Shown here: one piece after another, positions 18,562-63,434 of the stretch
Layout of the letters: the number at the start of each line of letters is the position of its first letter
How positions within the stretch are numbered: the first letter of the stretch is position 1
DNA from: Chryseobacterium oranimense
GTDB taxonomy: Bacteria > Bacteroidota > Bacteroidia > Flavobacteriales > Weeksellaceae
Direction: 5' to 3'
DNA: 64,000 bases
Assembly (NCBI RefSeq): GCF_900129755.1
Contig: NZ_FQWT01000002.1
Coordinates: 1 to 64,000 of the forward strand
Translations under genes and position numbers: made by a program
Notes under the pieces: model-generated
Told to the model about the DNA's origin: nothing
The model's database searches: none
Seen by the model: the letters and a program-made list of their open reading frames with translations, nothing else

Positions 18562-20070
18562 ATGATTTTCGACAAATTAATTAACTACCTGAAGCTCGAT
18601 AAACAGGAATTTTCTTTCCAGTTCAACTCTCATCCAAACTACCCTTCTGCATTGGCTTTTAGCGATACGCTTAACTTTATGGGAGTAAAAAATGATGCTT
18701 ATGAACTTGATAAGGAATATTGGGATGAGCTGCCGGAAGAGTTTATTGCGATCGTAGATAATTCCTTTTCCTTGGTAAAGAAAACAGGAGCCGGATATTC
18801 GGTCTATTCTGAAAAAGCAAAAACGCTTAATAAGGAAGAGCTTCATCAGAAATCGACAGATTTTGTACTGCTTTTCGAAAAAACTGAACATGCAGAAAGT
18901 AAAGCTGTTTTTGATTTCAAGCCTCTTTTGTATGTTATTTTTGCCATCATTCTAGGCTATTCCTTCTTTACACAAACTATATTTGAAGCTCTTTTTAATG
19001 TTCTGTCTCTTGCAGGTGTTTATATTTCGATGGAAATTTTCAATCAGAAATTCGGAAATACGTCTACAGTAATCGGAAGTATTTGTGGAGATACTTCAGC
19101 CAAACAGGCCATCAATTCATGTGATAAGATCATCAAACAAGATAAAACCAGTATTTTAGGCTTAAAATTTTCTGATTTTTCTCTGATCTATTTTACCGGC
19201 CTCGCTGCATTGGGACTTTTTCTTCCCGCAACAGCCTATATTGTAAAAGGATTTACGTTGGTTTCCGTACTGGCAATCGCCTATTCATTATACATCCAGG
19301 CATTTGTGGAAAAAGCTTTCTGCAGAGTTTGTCTTTTGATCATTTCAATTCTTGCAGGACAATTGGTTCTTAGCATATTATTTTTCCAGAGTACACCATT
19401 TAGTGTAGGAGCATTATTATTAACTGCAGTTCTGTGGATTCTTGTTTTCTCTGCGGTTCTGTATTTCAACAATATTCTTTCACAAAAAGAAAGCCTTCAG
19501 AAGTCGAATGCTAAAAATCTCAGATTTAAAAGAAATTATGAACTTTTCAAGAGCCAGCTTTTAGAAAAGGAGAAAATAGAATTCCAGGATACCGATACAT
19601 TCACATTAGGAAATAAAGATGCCAAGTTTCGTCTATCCATTGTCTCCAATCCATACTGTGGATTCTGTAAAGACGGCCATAAGATTATGGAAGGGCTTCT
19701 TGAAAAATATCCAGATGATATTTCCGTACAGATCCGTTTTAACTATTCTTCAGAAAGGGCTGATGAGAAGTACACTAAACTACTTTCAGCTTTTAAACAT
19801 ATCTATCAGACTAAGCCTCAAAAAGAATTTTTAAAAGCCGTTGAGGAGTGGTTTGAAACAAGAGACGAAAACAAGATCGTTAGCCTCTCAGGTTCATCTG
19901 CTCCGGAAGATCTTAGTCCATTTGTTGAAATGACAAAAGATAACAGTAATTCAGGATTAAACTTCACCCCTATTTTTATACTGAATGGATACCAGTTCCC
20001 GGATAAATATGATCGTGAAGATATCTGGTTCTTTATTGATGAATTAATGGAAGACGAGGACTTTCAATAA
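18562..20070 (+). CDS. C39-like / VKOR / thioredoxin fusion for disulfide formation
   Basis: A 502-aa membrane protein with three parts. Residues 1-110 resemble a degenerate C39-peptidase-like domain (SHPNYPSALAFSDTLNFMGV) without the catalytic cysteine. The middle is a vitamin K epoxide reductase (VKOR) bundle of about five helices with a loop cysteine pair (C175, C187, in CGDTSAKQAINSC) and the quinone-linked CRVC motif (254-257). The C-terminus is a DsbA-like thioredoxin domain with CGFC (366-369). By family, VKOR reoxidises the thioredoxin partner, which oxidises cysteines of exported substrates. The two downstream genes are a GG-leader peptide exporter and its adaptor. ATG 18562 was chosen because similarity starts there. 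Most likely role: oxidising exported six-cysteine peptides such as those at 63094-63434. Confidence 0.88.
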   Translation: MIFDKLINYLKLDKQEFSFQFNSHPNYPSALAFSDTLNFMGVKNDAYELDKEYWDELPEEFIAIVDNSFSLVKKTGAGYSVYSEKAKTLNKEELHQKSTDFVLLFEKTEHAESKAVFDFKPLLYVIFAIILGYSFFTQTIFEALFNVLSLAGVYISMEIFNQKFGNTSTVIGSICGDTSAKQAINSCDKIIKQDKTSILGLKFSDFSLIYFTGLAALGLFLPATAYIVKGFTLVSVLAIAYSLYIQAFVEKAFCRVCLLIISILAGQLVLSILFFQSTPFSVGALLLTAVLWILVFSAVLYFNNILSQKESLQKSNAKNLRFKRNYELFKSQLLEKEKIEFQDTDTFTLGNKDAKFRLSIVSNPYCGFCKDGHKIMEGLLEKYPDDISVQIRFNYSSERADEKYTKLLSAFKHIYQTKPQKEFLKAVEEWFETRDENKIVSLSGSSAPEDLSPFVEMTKDNSNSGLNFTPIFILNGYQFPDKYDREDIWFFIDELMEDEDFQ

Positions 20071-20169
20071 GAAATCTCCAGAATTCAAAAATTCACTATC
20101 TTAGGACAAAATTAAAAGCGGTTTCTGAAAAGCTTTGAAAGAGTAAGAGATAAAAAACTTAATAACAAT

Positions 20170-20214
20170 ATGAAAAATTTAAAAAAATGTTCTAAAGAAT
20201 ACAATAACAAATAA
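20170..20214 (+). CDS. Possible 14-codon remnant of a GG-leader peptide
   Basis: The short frame MKNLKKCSKEYNNK lies between the VKOR gene and the ABC exporter. Its first residues resemble the leader start of bacteriocin-like peptides of this group (compare MKKLKR in the peptides at 63094 and 63282) but it stops before any double glycine. It may be a decayed peptide gene or chance. There is no further evidence for translation. Confidence 0.2.
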   Translation: MKNLKKCSKEYNNK

Positions 20215-20255
20215 TAGTGTTAGTTAAAGATTAAGTTGTAACAATGAATAAAGAA

Positions 20256-20284
20256 AAAATGTCGTCATCCAATGACGGCATTTT
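20256..20284 (+). terminator. Hairpin between the VKOR and ABC exporter genes
   Basis: A 13-bp stem with one G-U pair (arms 20256-20268 and 20272-20284; core GTCGTCAT/ATGACGGC) with a 3-nt loop, ending in TTTT. It looks like an intrinsic terminator or attenuator 21 bases before the exporter start, so the exporter may be transcribed at a lower level or from its own promoter. Confidence 0.55.
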
Positions 20285-20304
20285 ACAATGAGATAAATTA
20301 AATT

Positions 20305-22497
20305 TTGAAGAAATTTCCCTTTTATAAACAGCCGGACGCTAAAGACTGCGGACCCACCTGCCTTAGAATAGTAAGTAAATATTACGGCAGAAGTATTTCT
20401 TTGCAGCAGATCCGTACTCTTTCTGAAACAACCCGTGAAGGAAGCAGCCTTCTGGGACTTAGTGATGCGTCAGAAAACCTGGGATTCCGCTCGCTTGGAG
20501 TCCAGATCGATTTTAATACCCTTGCAGAAGAAGTTCCGTTTCCCTGTATTGTCCATTGGAACAAGAACCACTTTGTTGTTGTCTATAAGATTGATAAAAA
20601 TAACAAGGTCTATATTTCGGATCCAAGTTATGGATTGATCACGTATACCCGCGAAGAATTCATTAAGTTATGGATTGGGGAAAATGCCAACGAAAATACG
20701 GAAGAAGGGATTGCCCTTATCCTTGAAACTACACCTGCATTTTTTCAAACTGAATTTGATACAGAGGAAAGCAAGGCAAGCTTCTCTTTCCTTTCGAAAT
20801 ACCTGCTTAAATACAAGTCGCTGGTTATACAGCTGGCGGTTGGTCTTTTGGCAGGAAGTTTACTGTCCCTTATATTTCCGTTTCTTACCCAAAGTATTGT
20901 AGATGTCGGGATACAGAATCAGGATCTCAATTTCATTTACGTAGTTCTTCTTGCCCAGGTTATGCTGTTTCTTGGAAGGATGGGGATTGAAGTAATCCGG
21001 AGCTGGATTTTGCTACATCTTTCTGCAAGGATCAATATTTCGATTATTTCAGATTTCTTTATCAAACTAATGAAGCTTCCTATAAGCTTTTTTGATACAA
21101 GAATGACCGGAGATATCATGCAGAGGATCAATGATCACCACAGAATTGAGCAGCTTCTGACGAGCTCCTCTTTAAATACCCTGTTTTCTCTTGTTAACCT
21201 TATTATCTTCAGTATTGTCCTGTTATTCTATGATTACAGACTTTTTCTTGTTTACCTTGTAGGAGCAGCTCTATACATTGGATGGATTACTTTTTTCCTT
21301 AATAAAAGAAAAGAATTGGATTATAAAAGATTCTCCCAGGTTTCCCAGGAACAGAGTAAGGTAATTGAGCTAATCAATGGAATGCAGGAGATCAAAATGC
21401 ATAATGCGGAAAAACAGAAGCGTTGGGACTGGGAATTCCTTCAGGTAAAATTATTTAAAATCAGGATAAAATCTCTTTCTCTGGAACAATGGCAGTCCGT
21501 AGGAGGAAATTTCATCAACCAGATGAAAGATATCCTGGTAAGTTTCCTTTCTGCCAAATTGGTTCTGAGCGGAAATCTTACTCTGGGGATGATGCTTTCG
21601 GTACAGTATATCATTGGACAGCTGAATAGTCCTTTGCTACAGCTTATCGAATTCATTAAACAAACCCAGGATGCCAAAATCTCTTTGGAAAGATTGGGTG
21701 AAATTCATGACAAAGAAGACGAAGAAGATAAAAATGAACAGTACGCGGGAGAAATTCCTCAGAAAGATATTGAAGTGAACAACATATCGTTCCGATATAT
21801 CGGGTCAGATGTTCCCGTGTTTGAAGATCTCAGTCTTACTATTCCCTATCAGAAGACTACAGCCATTGTAGGTTCCAGCGGAAGTGGAAAAACCACTCTT
21901 CTGAAGCTTCTGATGAAATTTTACGAACCTGACACAGGAGAAATTAGACTTGGAAATACCCAATTGAAAAGCATTTCACCAAGGGTCTGGAGAGATCATT
22001 GCGGAGTAGTAATGCAGGAGGGTTATGTATTCAATGACACTATTGCTAATAATATTGCAGTAGGAGAAGATTATGTTGACAAACAAAAATTGAGACGTGC
22101 TGTAGAGATTGCCAATATCAAAGATTTTATCGAAAGTCTTCCGCTAAGCTATAATACAAAGATCGGAAATGAAGGTGTAGGGGTGAGCGGTGGCCAGAAG
22201 CAGAGATTGTTTATTGCCAGAGCTGTATACAAGTCTCCGGAATTCATCTTTTTCGATGAGGCTACTTCCGCTTTGGACGCCAATAATGAAAAGGTGATCA
22301 TGGAAAATCTGGAACAGTTCTTTAAAGGCAAGACAGCCATTGTGATTGCCCACAGATTATCAACCGTAAAACATGCCGATAAAATTATAGTTCTTGATAA
22401 AGGCAAAGTGGTAGAGGAAGGCAACCATGCCGAATTGGTGGCCATAAAAGGGGAATACTACAGGCTGGTGAAGAATCAGCTGGAATTAGGAAATTAA
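20305..22497 (+). CDS. Peptidase C39-containing ABC exporter
   Basis: A 730-aa inner-membrane exporter that cleaves double-glycine leaders and pumps out the mature peptide. The N-terminal C39 peptidase has its full triad: C15 in KQPDAKDCGPTCLR, H89 in KNHFVVVY and D106 in ISDPSYG. A six-helix transmembrane domain follows (about 165-450), with TRMTGDIMQRINDH as coupling helix. The ATPase has Walker A GSSGSGKTT, signature VSGGQKQR, Walker B FIFFDEATSAL and switch H in IAHRLS. The start is TTG at 20305: it gives the family's conserved MKKFPFYKQ beginning, and no ATG is suitable. The HlyD adaptor follows. No peptide gene is adjacent; the peptides at 63 kb are the best candidates in the window. 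Confidence 0.95.
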   Translation: MKKFPFYKQPDAKDCGPTCLRIVSKYYGRSISLQQIRTLSETTREGSSLLGLSDASENLGFRSLGVQIDFNTLAEEVPFPCIVHWNKNHFVVVYKIDKNNKVYISDPSYGLITYTREEFIKLWIGENANENTEEGIALILETTPAFFQTEFDTEESKASFSFLSKYLLKYKSLVIQLAVGLLAGSLLSLIFPFLTQSIVDVGIQNQDLNFIYVVLLAQVMLFLGRMGIEVIRSWILLHLSARINISIISDFFIKLMKLPISFFDTRMTGDIMQRINDHHRIEQLLTSSSLNTLFSLVNLIIFSIVLLFYDYRLFLVYLVGAALYIGWITFFLNKRKELDYKRFSQVSQEQSKVIELINGMQEIKMHNAEKQKRWDWEFLQVKLFKIRIKSLSLEQWQSVGGNFINQMKDILVSFLSAKLVLSGNLTLGMMLSVQYIIGQLNSPLLQLIEFIKQTQDAKISLERLGEIHDKEDEEDKNEQYAGEIPQKDIEVNNISFRYIGSDVPVFEDLSLTIPYQKTTAIVGSSGSGKTTLLKLLMKFYEPDTGEIRLGNTQLKSISPRVWRDHCGVVMQEGYVFNDTIANNIAVGEDYVDKQKLRRAVEIANIKDFIESLPLSYNTKIGNEGVGVSGGQKQRLFIARAVYKSPEFIFFDEATSALDANNEKVIMENLEQFFKGKTAIVIAHRLSTVKHADKIIVLDKGKVVEEGNHAELVAIKGEYYRLVKNQLELGN

Positions 22498-22539
22498 ATA
22501 ATATCCTCCTTAAATATGGGAGGAATTTATCTCAGAAAC

Positions 22540-23838
22540 ATGAAAGAAGACATCTTAGACAATATTGAACTCCGTTCGGAAAGTGTTCAGGACATTCTTA
22601 CCCAGCCTCCTCATTGGATGATACGCTGGGGAAACAGTGTTATATTAATTATACTCCTGCTTATCCTTGTGATGAGCTATATTATAAAATATCCGGAATT
22701 CGTTTCCGCTCCTGTTATTGTAACATCGCAGAACCCTCCCGAGAAAATAGAAGCCAGGACAAGTTCTAAAATTGAGAAAATCTTTATAAAAGACCATCAG
22801 CAGGTTAAAAAGAACGATGTACTGATGGTTATGCAATCAACGGCAAATTATAAAGATGTTTTGGAGCTGAAAAAGCTTGTGGATTCTATCACTCCCAATC
22901 AGCTCAGCTCTTTTCCGATTGCGCAGACATCCAGGTTTAAGCTGGGCGAGCTTCAGGCTGATTACAACAATTTCGCCAAAGCTTTTCAGGATGAAGAGCT
23001 TTTCACAAGGCTCCAACCCTATGCTCCGGAAAATATAGCAGCCAATCAAAGTATTTCTGAATACAGGGGAAGAATTGCCACATTAAAACAGCAGAAAAGC
23101 CTGGAAATGGCCAAGTATGAATTATCAAAGAAAAGTTATCAGAGATCTCAGGAACTTTTCAACCAGGGTGTCATTGCTTCCATAGAACTTGAAAACGAGA
23201 AAATAAAATTCCTTCAGGCCCAGCAGAATCTTGAAAACCTTAATATTTCTATCTCCCAGATGGACGAAGGGATTTCGAACCTGAACAAAACGAAAAGCGG
23301 GACAGCTATTAATACGGAAAAAGACAAGATCACTTACTCTTCACAGACATTACAGCTTTTCGAGCAGCTCCGCAAATCTTTAAAGCAATGGGAGCAGAAT
23401 TACCTTGTTATTTCTTCTACTGATGGGATGGCCAGTTTTCAGCAGTTTTTCGGGGAAAATCAATTTGTGAAAACAGCAGAACCTATTCTGTCTATTCTTC
23501 CAAGCAACAAAGAAAAGCTGGTAGGCAGATTGTCCGTTCCTACCGTGAACTCAGGAAAGGTAGCCACAGGCCAGAAAGTATTGATTAAACTCGATAACTA
23601 CCGCTTCCAGGAATATGGTATCGTAGAAGGAAAAGTACAGAATATCTCCCTTATTCCTGATGAGAAAGGAAATTATTATGTAGATATAACTCTCCCTAAG
23701 GGATTAAAAACAAGCTATAATAAAACTCTTCCATTTGATAAAGAACTCAGAGGTAATGCAGAAATTGTAACCCAGGACCTGAGGCTGATTGAAAGGTTTT
23801 TCTACCAGATCAGAAAATTATTGGGATACCAAAGCTAA
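22540..23838 (+). CDS. HlyD-family adaptor (periplasmic membrane fusion protein)
   Basis: Bridges the ABC exporter to an outer-membrane channel. Of 432 aa, an N-terminal cytoplasmic part (ILDNIELRSESVQDILTQPP) is followed by one membrane helix (SVILIILLLILVMSYII), a first half-lipoyl domain (IEARTSSKIEKIFIKDHQQVKKNDVL), a long coiled-coil hairpin (LKQQKSLEMAKYELSKKSYQ to NLENLNISISQMDE) and a beta-barrel C-terminus (VGRLSVPTVNSGKVATGQKVLI). An ATG at 22516 is in frame, but the one at 22540 gives the conserved MKEDILDNIELRSE beginning. A small hairpin (TCCTCC / GGAGGA, 22503-22523) lies in front and could tune its expression. No TolC gene is nearby, so a chromosomally distant channel is presumably shared. 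Confidence 0.92.
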   Translation: MKEDILDNIELRSESVQDILTQPPHWMIRWGNSVILIILLLILVMSYIIKYPEFVSAPVIVTSQNPPEKIEARTSSKIEKIFIKDHQQVKKNDVLMVMQSTANYKDVLELKKLVDSITPNQLSSFPIAQTSRFKLGELQADYNNFAKAFQDEELFTRLQPYAPENIAANQSISEYRGRIATLKQQKSLEMAKYELSKKSYQRSQELFNQGVIASIELENEKIKFLQAQQNLENLNISISQMDEGISNLNKTKSGTAINTEKDKITYSSQTLQLFEQLRKSLKQWEQNYLVISSTDGMASFQQFFGENQFVKTAEPILSILPSNKEKLVGRLSVPTVNSGKVATGQKVLIKLDNYRFQEYGIVEGKVQNISLIPDEKGNYYVDITLPKGLKTSYNKTLPFDKELRGNAEIVTQDLRLIERFFYQIRKLLGYQS

Positions 23839-24153: not shown

Positions 24154-25446
24154 TTATTTTAGCTTAAAATATTCCAAAACATTCCCCACGTGATCTGGTT
24201 TATTGATTATCTTATTGTTAGCATCTAAAATAAAATACGTCGGAGTTGCATGAACATTGTACGTATCTACATAACTACTGTTCCATCCTCTTAATTCAGA
24301 ATCATTGATCCAAGGAAATGCAGCAATCTTTTGAGTATATGAGTTCTTATCCACATCCAGGGATAATCCAATAATCTGTACATTTTTACCTTTCAGATCA
24401 CTATATTTTGCCAAAAGTTGAGGCAGTTCACTTTCACAATGAGAGCATGTAGATGACCAGAAAACAACTATCTTTTTATCCGCTTTTACATCATACAGTG
24501 ACTTTGCAGATGTATTTGCCGGAGACTGAAATTTAACATTAGGAAATGCAGCTCCAATTTCAACATTGGCATTGGATTTTAAAGTAGATGCCAGCCTGTC
24601 ATTGATAGTACACTTAAGGTTTTTTGCCAATGTAAGATATTTCGTTTTAAACTCTTCCATATCATACGCGTCAAAGATATCAATAAGCTCTGATAACACC
24701 GTCTGCCCTCTTGGAGTTTCCACCTTTAAACGGTCTAAAAGTGTATCTACAGAAGCTCCTACATTGGTATTTCCTCCTGAATTAAGATAAGCCACTAAAA
24801 CCGGTCTTAAAAGAGAAGACGATTCAAGCATATCATTGGATTTATCCAGAAAGTTAACAATATCGTCCTGAGTAACTTTTTTAGTCGAATCTGCAGAGTT
24901 AGACAGAAACTTGTTATAATTGGTATTATAATAGGAAATAAACGGATGCTGGGTAGCATCAATAGCTGTATTCATTCCGGCAAGCCTTTCTATTTCTGTT
25001 TTCAGCGCTTTTCCGAAATCTGTATTGTCTTTGTAATATTCTTTAATCTGTGCCAGGGCCGGAAGAATAAGATCTTTCTTCTGCGAACCTTCCTGCTGTT
25101 TACTCATAAGATCATTCACTTCATCAAGATAGATTACATCTTTGATCTTATTATTCTGAACATCCATTTTGATGTTTACATTTTTATTTTCCGAAACAAA
25201 GCTTACCGAATTATTTGAAGCCGGAAAATACACTTTCATCATTCCCATATAATGACTGGGATATTTGAAGGTCCAAGTATTGTTCTTGCTCTGTTCTTTG
25301 GTAACGATAATATCTTTCGAACCGTTTAATGTATATAGAATAGCATCCTGATCTTTAAATTCTGCCGGTGTCTGAATTGTAACTGTAAACTGTGCCTGCA
25401 GGGAAAATGCAGCTAATACTGCAGATAATATATATATCTTTTTCAT
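24154..25446 (-). CDS. Secreted TlpA-like thiol-disulfide protein
   Basis: A 430-aa exported protein: signal peptide MKKIYILSAVLAAFSLQAQ, a beta-rich N-terminal domain (residues 20-110; DUF4369-like by position, not confirmed), a helical middle region, and a C-terminal thioredoxin domain with the active site CSHC (334-337) and the cis-proline in HATPT (402). TlpA/ResA-type proteins keep periplasmic or surface cysteines reduced. It sits 45 bases from tRNA-Met on the same strand, downstream of the PID-CTERM-like gene. Although near the disulfide-forming export operon, it is on the opposite strand, and a functional link is only a guess. Confidence 0.88.
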   Translation of the reverse strand: MKKIYILSAVLAAFSLQAQFTVTIQTPAEFKDQDAILYTLNGSKDIIVTKEQSKNNTWTFKYPSHYMGMMKVYFPASNNSVSFVSENKNVNIKMDVQNNKIKDVIYLDEVNDLMSKQQEGSQKKDLILPALAQIKEYYKDNTDFGKALKTEIERLAGMNTAIDATQHPFISYYNTNYNKFLSNSADSTKKVTQDDIVNFLDKSNDMLESSSLLRPVLVAYLNSGGNTNVGASVDTLLDRLKVETPRGQTVLSELIDIFDAYDMEEFKTKYLTLAKNLKCTINDRLASTLKSNANVEIGAAFPNVKFQSPANTSAKSLYDVKADKKIVVFWSSTCSHCESELPQLLAKYSDLKGKNVQIIGLSLDVDKNSYTQKIAAFPWINDSELRGWNSSYVDTYNVHATPTYFILDANNKIINKPDHVGNVLEYFKLK

Positions 25447-25507: not shown

Positions 25508-25729
25508 TTAGGCTTTTTGGCTCTTAAATTTCTTTGTATAGTATACGATGAATGCTACTGCTACAATAGATAGCAAATAAACATACATATCAATAGGTGA
25601 TGCTACCCCTCCAGGTCCTACACCTCCTGTACCTCCACCTCCTGGTGCTGGTGGTATTTCATCATCTGCCTTGACTAAAAGTGTCCCGAAAAAGAAAAGA
25701 GCAAGTACTAGTTTATTAATAGTTTTCAT
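25508..25729 (-). CDS. Small PID-CTERM-like surface protein
   Basis: A 73-aa protein: signal peptide (MKTINKLVLALFFFGTLLVKA), an acidic start, a Pro/Gly-rich stretch (PPAPGGGGTGGVGPGG), then SPIDMYVYLLSIVAVAFIVYYTKKFKSQ. The latter is a tripartite C-terminal signal: a short P-I-D motif, a membrane helix and a basic tail. This architecture matches the PID-CTERM sorting class known from flavobacteria, thought to be processed by an exosortase-like enzyme (family assignment from memory). It starts 6 bases after the T9SS protein's stop and is surely in the same operon. The function of the tiny mature part is unknown. Confidence 0.8.
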   Translation of the reverse strand: MKTINKLVLALFFFGTLLVKADDEIPPAPGGGGTGGVGPGGVASPIDMYVYLLSIVAVAFIVYYTKKFKSQKA

Positions 25730-63093: not shown

Positions 63094-63270
63094 ATGAAAA
63101 AGCTAAAAAGAAATGCGCTAAAAACCATTTTAGGCGGAAAAAAAGATTGCAGATGCATAACAATAACTTATTCTGACGGCTCTGTAAGCAGCAACTGCGT
63201 TACGGAATACTGTACCGAAATAAGTCTTGCATGCGCACAGACAGAATGCCAACCAGTTCTTGAACTTTAA
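63094..63270 (+). CDS. GG-leader six-cysteine bacteriocin-like peptide 1
   Basis: A 58-aa precursor. Residues 1-15 (MKKLKRNALKTILGG) form a double-glycine leader nearly identical to peptide 2. Cleavage after G15 would leave a 43-aa mature peptide starting KKDCRC, with six cysteines (C19, C21, C35, C40, C47, C52). This is the class NCBI calls 'bacteriocin-like protein' in Chryseobacterium (recollection). The even number of cysteines suggests disulfides. The peptide gene precedes peptide 2 by 11 bases. No exporter is adjacent, but the C39 exporter and VKOR fusion at 18.5-23.8 kb would process this type of leader. Activity unknown; bacteriocin, signal or effector are all possible. Confidence 0.8.
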   Translation: MKKLKRNALKTILGGKKDCRCITITYSDGSVSSNCVTEYCTEISLACAQTECQPVLEL

Positions 63271-63281
63271 AAATTAATTTT

Positions 63282-63434
63282 ATGAAAAAGCTAAAAAGAC
63301 ATGATTTAAAGAAAATCAGCGGAGGTGTTTCTGCTGAAATAGTAGAGTGCGATATTAATATGAACTGCCCTACAGGCTTATGCTGCTCAACGGGGAATAT
63401 CTGCAGAGATCCCAGAAGATATCCTTGTATTTAA
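63282..63434 (+). CDS. GG-leader hevein/knottin-like six-cysteine peptide 2
   Basis: A 50-aa precursor, leader MKKLKRHDLKKISGG, mature peptide 35 aa. Cysteines C23, C29, C34, C35, C41, C49 give the pattern C-x5-C-x4-CC-x5-C-x7-C, the arrangement shared by inhibitor-cystine-knot and hevein-type peptides. NCPTGLCCSTGNIC aligns with the hevein core CPNNLCCS-x4-C (same x4 and x5 spacings, shared C-P-x-x-L-C-C-S). The aromatic chitin-binding residues are mostly absent. This may be convergent. A terminator follows at 63456, so the two peptide genes form a short operon. Confidence 0.8.
   Translation: MKKLKRHDLKKISGGVSAEIVECDINMNCPTGLCCSTGNICRDPRRYPCI

What the first reader, a model, noticed from the sequence alone, without database searches (positions are those of the whole stretch)
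18562..23838. Dedicated export-and-disulfide machine for GG-leader cysteine peptides
A three-part C39-like/VKOR/thioredoxin protein is followed by a C39-peptidase ABC exporter with an intact Cys15-His89-Asp106 triad and a HlyD adaptor. The VKOR fusion has all its cysteine pairs (C175/C187, CRVC 254-257, CGFC 366-369). Such a set can cut a double-glycine leader, export the peptide and form its disulfides. No peptide gene lies beside it; two matching precursors occur at 63094-63434. The N-terminal degenerate C39-like domain of the VKOR protein may hold the leader, as accessory C39-like domains do in some exporters. The combination appears little described.
Basis: partly seen in the sequence, partly recalled or inferred. 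Interest (0 to 1): 0.85.

Follow-up and report, generated by a model that had tools for sequence, protein, structure and literature searches.

The report
Disulfide exporter for scattered cysteine peptides
Next to a peptide exporter this Chryseobacterium carries a disulfide-making membrane enzyme with a degenerate leader-reading domain; together they very probably process and release more than thirty small cysteine-rich peptides scattered over the genome, and the enzyme's charge pattern suggests it works inside the cell, before export.

Summary
In detail: at 18562-23838 lie a C39-like/VKOR/thioredoxin fusion, a C39-peptidase ABC exporter with its triad, and a HlyD adaptor. The peptide link, a guess at first stage, is now well supported by comparison. 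At least 32 GG-leader precursors are scattered over this genome. Fusion and leader family occur together in 61 of 197 family genomes (7 fusion only, 4 leader only, 125 neither). In 63 of 76 related loci precursor genes sit inside the cluster; the window keeps a 14-codon stub of one. Mature parts have an even number of cysteines in 145 of 148. The VKOR N-domain has the C39 fold without catalytic residues. New here: an extra helix puts this domain on the same side as all redox cysteines, and K/R density marks that side as cytosolic in 70 of 71 fusions, against 1 of 24 ordinary VKORs. So the fusion is probably an inverted VKOR that takes leader-bearing precursors in the cytosol and oxidises them before export. 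Leader docking, orientation and oxidation are inferred, not shown.

The parts
18562..20070 (+). C39-like / VKOR / DsbA-like thioredoxin fusion (502 aa); residues 1-113 C39-like, extra helix TM0 119-137, VKOR core 139-278, last helix from 282, Trx 335-502
20170..20214 (+). stub of a GG-leader precursor gene (14 codons and stop; about the first 8 codons match relatives), slot 1; the peptide body is missing
   Evidence: same place in other loci (30 loci, own included); DNA alignment with three relatives
20256..20284 (+). hairpin (13 bp stem, 3 nt loop, -14.7 kcal/mol for the 60-base stretch), conserved in three aligned relatives; terminator or leader element
20305..22497 (+). C39-peptidase ABC exporter (PCAT type, 730 aa, TTG start), triad C15/H89/D106
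22540..23838 (+). HlyD-family adaptor (432 aa; longer frame from 22516)
63094..63270 (+). precursor peptide, leader MKKLKRNALKTILGG, 6 Cys in mature part
63282..63434 (+). precursor peptide, leader MKKLKRHDLKKISGG, 6 Cys in mature part

Best explanation
The three genes are the dedicated maturation and export machine for a genome-wide set of small cysteine-rich GG-leader peptides. Precursors come from scattered genes. Their shared leader (hydrophobic at -4, -7, -12, -15) docks on the non-catalytic C39 domain of the VKOR fusion; the DsbA-like domain (CGFC) makes the disulfides and passes electrons through C175/C187 and C254-C257 to membrane quinone. The precursor then moves to the catalytic C39 domain of the ABC exporter, is cut after GG, and leaves through ABC and HlyD (plus an outer-membrane channel encoded elsewhere, not looked for). 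An extra helix and the K/R distribution suggest that the whole redox face is cytosolic, so that oxidation comes before cleavage and export. Shown by computation: domains, fold, co-occurrence, synteny, stub, cysteine parity, charge pattern. Inferred: leader docking on the VKOR fusion, orientation, order of steps, oxidation itself.
For: Co-occurrence of fusion and leader family: 61 both / 7 / 4 / 125 of 197 genomes (Fisher p 1e-37, relatedness ignored). In the genus 48 of 50 have both and 2 neither; those 2 hold one C39 ABC each, 44-46% identical to the window's, against 89-99% in the 76 loci. Precursor genes in slot 1 in 47 of 76 and slot 2 in 45 of 76 loci, 63 of 76 in either; 157 leader hits against 0 on reversed DNA. 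Even Cys number in 145 of 148 unique mature parts found by leader alone and 28 of the 30 best own ones. 9 of 32 own peptides match peptides near relatives' fusions, shuffles 0-1 of 30. Leader positions -4, -7, -12, -15 hydrophobic in 96-99% of 186, partly by choice since a leader profile picked them; LahT C39 docks -4, -7, -12 (PMC6363468, passages). C39 fold, hhalign 89.5% and E 2e-6 to the exporter's own C39; core 11-60 is the most conserved stretch in the genus (0.95; VKOR 0.75, Trx 0.67). Charge: K+R mean 11.1 on the redox side, 1.4 opposite, 71 of 71; ordinary VKOR 2.0 and 9.3, 23 of 24 the other way. Per residue, to allow for shorter opposite loops: 0.162 against 0.054, 70 of 71; ordinary 0.044 against 0.209, 23 of 24 the other way. 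No DsbB match at E 0.1 and one VKOR in the genome. VKOR, small Cys proteins, PCAT, HlyD in this order also on Aureibacter and Emticicia plasmids, with a TlpA gene between in Emticicia.
Against: No experiment. The full-length model is only pLDDT 71. Charge bias is a rule with exceptions: the short VKOR L287 breaks it, L300 could not be scored, net charge (K+R minus D+E) agrees in 68 of 71 only, and both groups hold close relatives. In the diverse set the whole N-domain is no more conserved than the rest (0.33, 0.33, 0.32); only its core is (0.46). DsbA-like domains and VKOR active faces are normally extracytoplasmic (recalled). 13 of 76 loci have no precursor in either slot, and the window itself has only the stub. 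7 genomes have a fusion match without the leader family, 4 the leader without a fusion; one of these 4, G178, holds an 88% identical exporter, and G126, counted as having both, has only fusion fragments and no C39 exporter. A second C39 exporter (50% identical) exists in the genome, so the cargo could be shared.
Confidence: 0.72

Rival explanations
1. Same machine, but ordinary orientation: VKOR and Trx face the periplasm and oxidise peptides after export; the C39-like domain is also periplasmic and docks something else, such as the exporter or adaptor.
For: The VKOR core matches Synechococcus and human VKOR (Z about 14), whose active face is recalled to be extracytoplasmic; Trx matches periplasmic ScsC/DsbA. 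The bacteroidetocin thiol oxidoreductase is needed for full toxin activity (PMC6671954, section 7 read).
Against: K+R opposite to that of ordinary VKORs in 71 of 71 by count and 70 of 71 by density; a 113-residue N-domain would have to cross the membrane ahead of TM0; the leader is expected to be cut by the exporter's own C39 domain, so none would be left to read, yet the C39-like core is the most conserved stretch in the genus.
Confidence: 0.35
2. The VKOR fusion is the cell's general disulfide oxidase and only happens to lie by the exporter.
For: It is the only VKOR found and there is no DsbB match in this genome.
Against: Absent in 2 of 50 genus members together with the peptides, and in 129 of 197 genomes of the family; fused to a leader-reading fold; similar neighbours outside the family.
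Confidence: 0.1
3. The fusion is a reductase or isomerase that keeps precursors reduced or corrects disulfides, not an oxidase.
For: CGFC is not the classical DsbA motif (recalled); a cytosolic position would suit a reductase.
Against: The VKOR module with both Cys pairs invariant normally runs from thiol to quinone, which is oxidation (recalled).
Confidence: 0.08
4. The scattered peptides leave by the second C39 exporter of the genome.
For: A second, 50% identical exporter with catalytic triad exists.
Against: It sits with its own Cys-free GG peptide, a protein with a JmjC match below cut-off and an outer-membrane receptor; no HlyD or VKOR and no leader-family gene was found in the 13-kb stretch.
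Confidence: 0.07

Closest known systems
Bacteroidetocin regions of Bacteroidales (PMC6671954; section 7 read, other passages seen)
   Same: GG-leader peptide with Cys, C39 ABC exporter, thiol oxidoreductase gene; deletion of peptide, TM or oxidoreductase gene attenuates toxin
   Different: There the peptide sits in a four-gene region with a separate 5-TM protein and the text does not name HlyD; here VKOR, Trx and C39-like domain are one protein and over thirty diverse precursors are scattered
VKOR-DsbA type disulfide oxidases (Synechococcus VKOR, 4nv5/3kp9)
   Same: VKOR core fold and both Cys pairs, C-terminal Trx domain
   Different: Extra N-terminal C39-like domain plus extra TM helix; reversed K/R asymmetry compared with ordinary VKORs of the phylum
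C39-like domains (HlyB CLD, 3zua) and C39 leader proteases (LahT, PCAT1)
   Same: Fold of residues 1-113; loss of catalytic residues, as in HlyB
   Different: On a redox enzyme instead of an ABC exporter
Aeropyrum pernix VKOR acting in two compartments (Hibender 2017; title seen in the reference list of PMC12453122, text not held)
   Same: Precedent, by its title, for VKOR-made disulfides in a second compartment
   Different: Archaeal; no C39-like domain (recalled)
Prochlorosin system (recalled; up to 30 prochlorosins in one strain noted in PMC6363468, passage)
   Same: One machine for many diverse GG-leader precursors
   Different: Thioether rings by a lanthionine synthetase instead of disulfides
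NCBIfam NF047798 leader_Chryseo, 'bacteriocin-like protein'
   Same: Own-genome precursors carry this leader
   Different: An annotation model of the leader only; no machine named in the table seen

Membership tests
VKOR family (PF07884) | Model match over cut-off, two Cys pairs, VKOR fold | tested here: met
   40.3 bits vs 27.5; C175/C187/C254/C257 invariant; Z 14.6 to 4nv5 over 124 residues, 2.4 A
VKOR family (PF07884) | Active face extracytoplasmic, one TM helix before the first Cys pair | tested here: inconclusive
   Two helices before it and opposite charge asymmetry; orientation itself needs an experiment
Peptidase C39 / C39-like domain (N-domain of the fusion) | C39 fold | tested here: met
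   Z 11.4 to 6mpz_B over 108 residues, 2.9 A; 3zua 10.5; but a papain-like toxin chain (9l5u_B) still reaches 10.1. PF03412: 13.6 bits in the window's protein, over the cut-off of 22 in fusions L094, L103, L104, below it or unlisted in the other ten fusions scanned
Peptidase C39 / C39-like domain (N-domain of the fusion) | Catalytic Cys, His, Asp | tested here: not met
   No Cys in residues 1-113; the exporter's His89 and Asp106 have no His or Asp opposite them: C39-like, not a peptidase
PCAT exporter (C39-peptidase ABC transporter) | N-terminal C39 with triad, ABC membrane and ATPase domains | tested here: met
Class II bacteriocin-like GG-leader peptides | GG leader with hydrophobic -4, -7, -12, Cys-rich core | tested here: met
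   leaders were picked by a leader profile, Cys were not
Class II bacteriocin-like GG-leader peptides | Antibacterial activity | not testable with these tools
   no assay
Bacteroidetocin region | Peptide gene adjacent, 5-TM protein, separate thiol oxidoreductase | tested here: not met
   No intact adjacent peptide in the window, fusion instead
Bacteroidetocin region | Peptide similar in sequence to bacteroidetocins | not tested
   no comparison made

The most novel reading that the evidence does not exclude
The fusion is an inverted VKOR: it catches leader-bearing precursors in the cytosol with a retired C39 protease domain and installs their disulfides there, before an exporter with a live C39 domain reads the same leader, cuts it and pumps out the folded product. 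Disulfide formation would be a leader-guided step in the cytosol, as in RiPP pathways, serving dozens of unrelated cores.
Probability: 0.5. Interest if true: 0.9.

Novelty: new variant of a known kind. Interest (0 to 1): 0.74.

Why it matters
It would join a large class of 'orphan' Cys-rich GG peptides in Chryseobacterium and other Bacteroidota to one machine, explain how a genome without a DsbB match could oxidise them, and make leader-guided disulfide formation in the cytosol directly testable. Such an oxidase with a common leader would also be a tool for making disulfide peptides of choice.

Tried and rejected
General oxidase by chance beside an exporter: rejected as main reading because of co-absence, synteny and the C39 fusion. 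Second exporter as carrier: unlikely (own Cys-free peptide). First automatic charge count mistook TM0 for TM1 in many fusions; classes were therefore set by hand (A1, A3, and by sight L280, L297, L298, L299, L302 as C39-type; the other 25 of the 30 loci as ordinary) and the count repeated under one rule. With alignment-fixed positions the result is the same, 24 of 24 and 43 of 43. Because opposite loops are shorter in the fusions (mean 25 against 68 residues), densities were compared too: 70 of 71 and 1 of 24. L300 could not be scored, L287 is the one exception among ordinary ones. TM0 fell below my hydrophobicity limit in 3 of 71. The short peptide matches of L004 and L023 (9 and 7 residues) are probably chance; without them 7 of 32. 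The lists use loose patterns that ask for Cys and hold some out-of-frame false peptides; the slot and Cys counts come only. One search kept the best 80 of 129 relatives, some of them two strains of one species; four of the 80 (L171, L188, L196, L205) had no ABC/HlyD match in the stretch held and are left out of the 76. Literature, held library only: no paper with Bacteroidetes + vitamin K epoxide reductase + C39 + ABC transporter + bacteriocin or VKOR + bacteriocin + disulfide; vitamin K epoxide reductase + bacteriocin gave one review on drug response, not opened; of 367 papers with 'VKOR' or 'C39-like domain' the ten first-ranked hold only VKOR, and papers with both would rank first; Chryseobacterium + double-glycine leader + bacteriocin gave one paper on graspetides (passages); PMC4555120 on VKOR phylogeny has no C39, peptidase or Bacteroidetes. 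Passages of PMC8546649 and PMC10352776 named no VKOR. Subscription papers are not covered.
Full report
Observation. The three ORFs are there as described and the Pfam calls agree. All six redox cysteines of the fusion are invariant in 24 aligned fusions, the other 23 being 22-70% identical to the window's; the exporter's C15, H89 and D106 are invariant in seven exporters. HlyD is 432 aa in many relatives, which fits a start at 22540.

The cargo. NCBIfam has a leader model, NF047798 leader_Chryseo. In the window's own genome it has 23 matches over its cut-off and 31 at E <= 0.01. I read the best 30: every mature part has 4 to 8 cysteines, 28 of 30 an even number. The two in the window (63094, 63282) score below the cut-off and have six each. 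They lie on many contigs. The genome shows one VKOR, no DsbB match at E 0.1 and two C39 exporters. The second exporter sits with a Cys-free GG peptide and an outer-membrane receptor, and has no HlyD or VKOR beside it.

The link. (a) Co-occurrence in 197 genomes of the family, fusion at E 1e-5 and leader at E 0.01: 61 with both, 7 with fusion only, 4 with leader only (best E 2e-4 to 3e-3), 125 with neither (Fisher p 1e-37 ignores relatedness). Within the genus 48 of 50 have both; G133 and G154 have neither, and their one C39 exporter each is 44-46% identical to the window's, against 89-99% in the 76 loci below. Some fusion matches outside the genus are fragments or distant paralogs of 24-36% identity; G126, counted as both, has fragments and no C39 exporter, and G178, leader only, has an 88% identical exporter. 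(b) Synteny: a leader scan that demands no cysteine found precursor genes between VKOR and ABC in 47 of 76 loci and between ABC and HlyD in 45 of 76; 63 of 76 have at least one and 13 none (best 80 of 129 relatives, four left out). The same scan on reversed DNA of 1.04 Mb gave 0 hits against 157. (c) The stub: at 20170 the window keeps the first codons of such a gene; aligned with Chryseobacterium sp. BLS98 and C. lathyri, both sides of the gap match and the body is missing. Its close sister L037 has the same kind of stub. (d) 9 of 32 own peptides (7 without two very short matches) match peptides found within 6 kb of relatives' fusions, shuffled cores 0-1 of 30. So the scattered genes and the locus genes look like one population.

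Disulfides. Among 148 unique mature parts found by leader alone, 145 have an even number of cysteines and none lacks cysteine (parity p 3e-39, not corrected for relatedness).

The N-domain. Folded alone it reaches pLDDT 82.9 and matches PCAT1, the LahT protease-leader complex and ComA at Z 10.7-11.4, and the HlyB C39-like domain at Z 10.5; a papain-like toxin chain still reaches 10.1. Profile comparison with the exporter's own C39 domain gives 89.5% and E 2e-6. The catalytic Cys, His and Asp are gone. Its residues 11-60 are the most conserved stretch in the genus, pairwise identity 0.95 against 0.75 for the VKOR core and 0.67 for Trx; in the diverse set the whole N-domain is level with the rest (0.33) and only the core stands out (0.46). 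This fits a fixed binding partner. The leader is hydrophobic at -4, -7, -12 and -15 in 96-99% of 186, which is partly the result of picking them by a leader profile; -4, -7 and -12 are the residues that LahT's C39 groove holds, and C39-like domains are thought to recruit substrate (PMC6363468, passages).

Orientation. The model of the whole protein (pLDDT 71.3) and plain hydrophobicity show six membrane helices. VKOR core residues 139-278 align with Synechococcus VKOR from its residue 17 on, so helix 119-137 is extra, and N-domain, Cys loop, CRVC and Trx come to lie on one side. Counting K+R next to the helices under one rule, all 71 C39-type fusions have more on that side (mean 11.1 against 1.4), while 23 of 24 scorable ordinary VKORs from the phylum have more on the other side (2.0 against 9.3). 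The opposite loops of the fusions are short, so I also compared densities: 0.162 against 0.054 per residue, 70 of 71, and for ordinary VKORs 0.044 against 0.209, 23 of 24 the other way; net charge agrees in 68 of 71 fusions. By the positive-inside rule the redox face of the fusions is cytosolic. The five C39-type fusions from outside the window's family (L280, L297, L298, L299, L302; assigned by sight) go the same way. VKOR-made disulfides in a second compartment have a precedent in title (Hibender 2017, seen only in a reference list). Export of a folded peptide is possible in principle: the PCAT1 channel is said to fit a small folded cargo (PMC8277102, passage), and LahT cuts precursors with ready-made rings (PMC6363468, passage).

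Breadth. Of 14 loci with a fusion taken from other genomes of the order, 10 hold ABC and HlyD matches too, and 9 of these a GG small ORF with Cys by a loose pattern. Plasmids of Aureibacter and Emticicia carry VKOR, small Cys proteins, exporter and HlyD in that order, with a TlpA gene between in Emticicia. NCBI annotates the parts (vitamin K epoxide reductase family protein, peptidase domain-containing ABC transporter); I found no paper on the set. The nearest tested system is the bacteroidetocin region (PMC6671954).

Verdict. The dedicated machine is well supported by comparison; leader docking on the fusion is likely; the cytosolic position is the bold part and rests on helix count and charge. 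Function of the peptides remains open; diversity, turnover and decay look bacteriocin-like, which is inference.

Noticed in passing
L106:896-7121 (own genome, contig C7 near 227913): A second C39 exporter with a Cys-free GG peptide (L106:3359-3511), a 423-aa protein with a JmjC match below cut-off, and an outer-membrane beta-barrel receptor: looks like a separate peptide system.
   Followed up: partly
L066, L082, L085, L093, L121: GLPGLI-family genes (TIGR01200) lie beside precursor genes or the fusion: 5 of 5 tested ORFs of about 270 aa matched. L085 has three more ORFs of that size, not tested.
   Followed up: partly
24154-25446 (-): Thioredoxin-like protein (Thioredoxin_8, weak DUF4369) converging on the locus; an ORF of 428-430 aa holds this place in many relatives (identity not checked), and a TlpA-type gene lies inside the Emticicia cluster (L306).
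   Followed up: no
20256-20284: Hairpin conserved about 15-20 bases before the TTG start of the exporter gene in the window and three relatives; terminator of the VKOR-peptide unit or a 5' element.
   Followed up: partly
25508-25729 (-): 73-aa protein with signal-like start, Gly/Pro linker, SPID motif, hydrophobic stretch and basic tail, like a PID-type sorting signal (recalled), beside a long secreted-type protein.
   Followed up: no
L287, L300: Short VKOR-like proteins with a K/R-rich first Cys loop, unlike the other ordinary VKORs.
   Followed up: no
L303:6565-8110 (Parabacteroides distasonis): Annotated as two overlapping genes, a C39-domain protein and a thioredoxin-domain protein, where other genomes have one fusion: split or frameshifted copy.
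   Followed up: no
L304:6917-14730 (Parabacteroides distasonis): VKOR fusion, small Cys protein with an AG-type leader, DUF4369 protein, LanC-like gene, two glycosyltransferase-type genes and PCAT exporter in one run: possible further modified peptide cluster.
   Followed up: no
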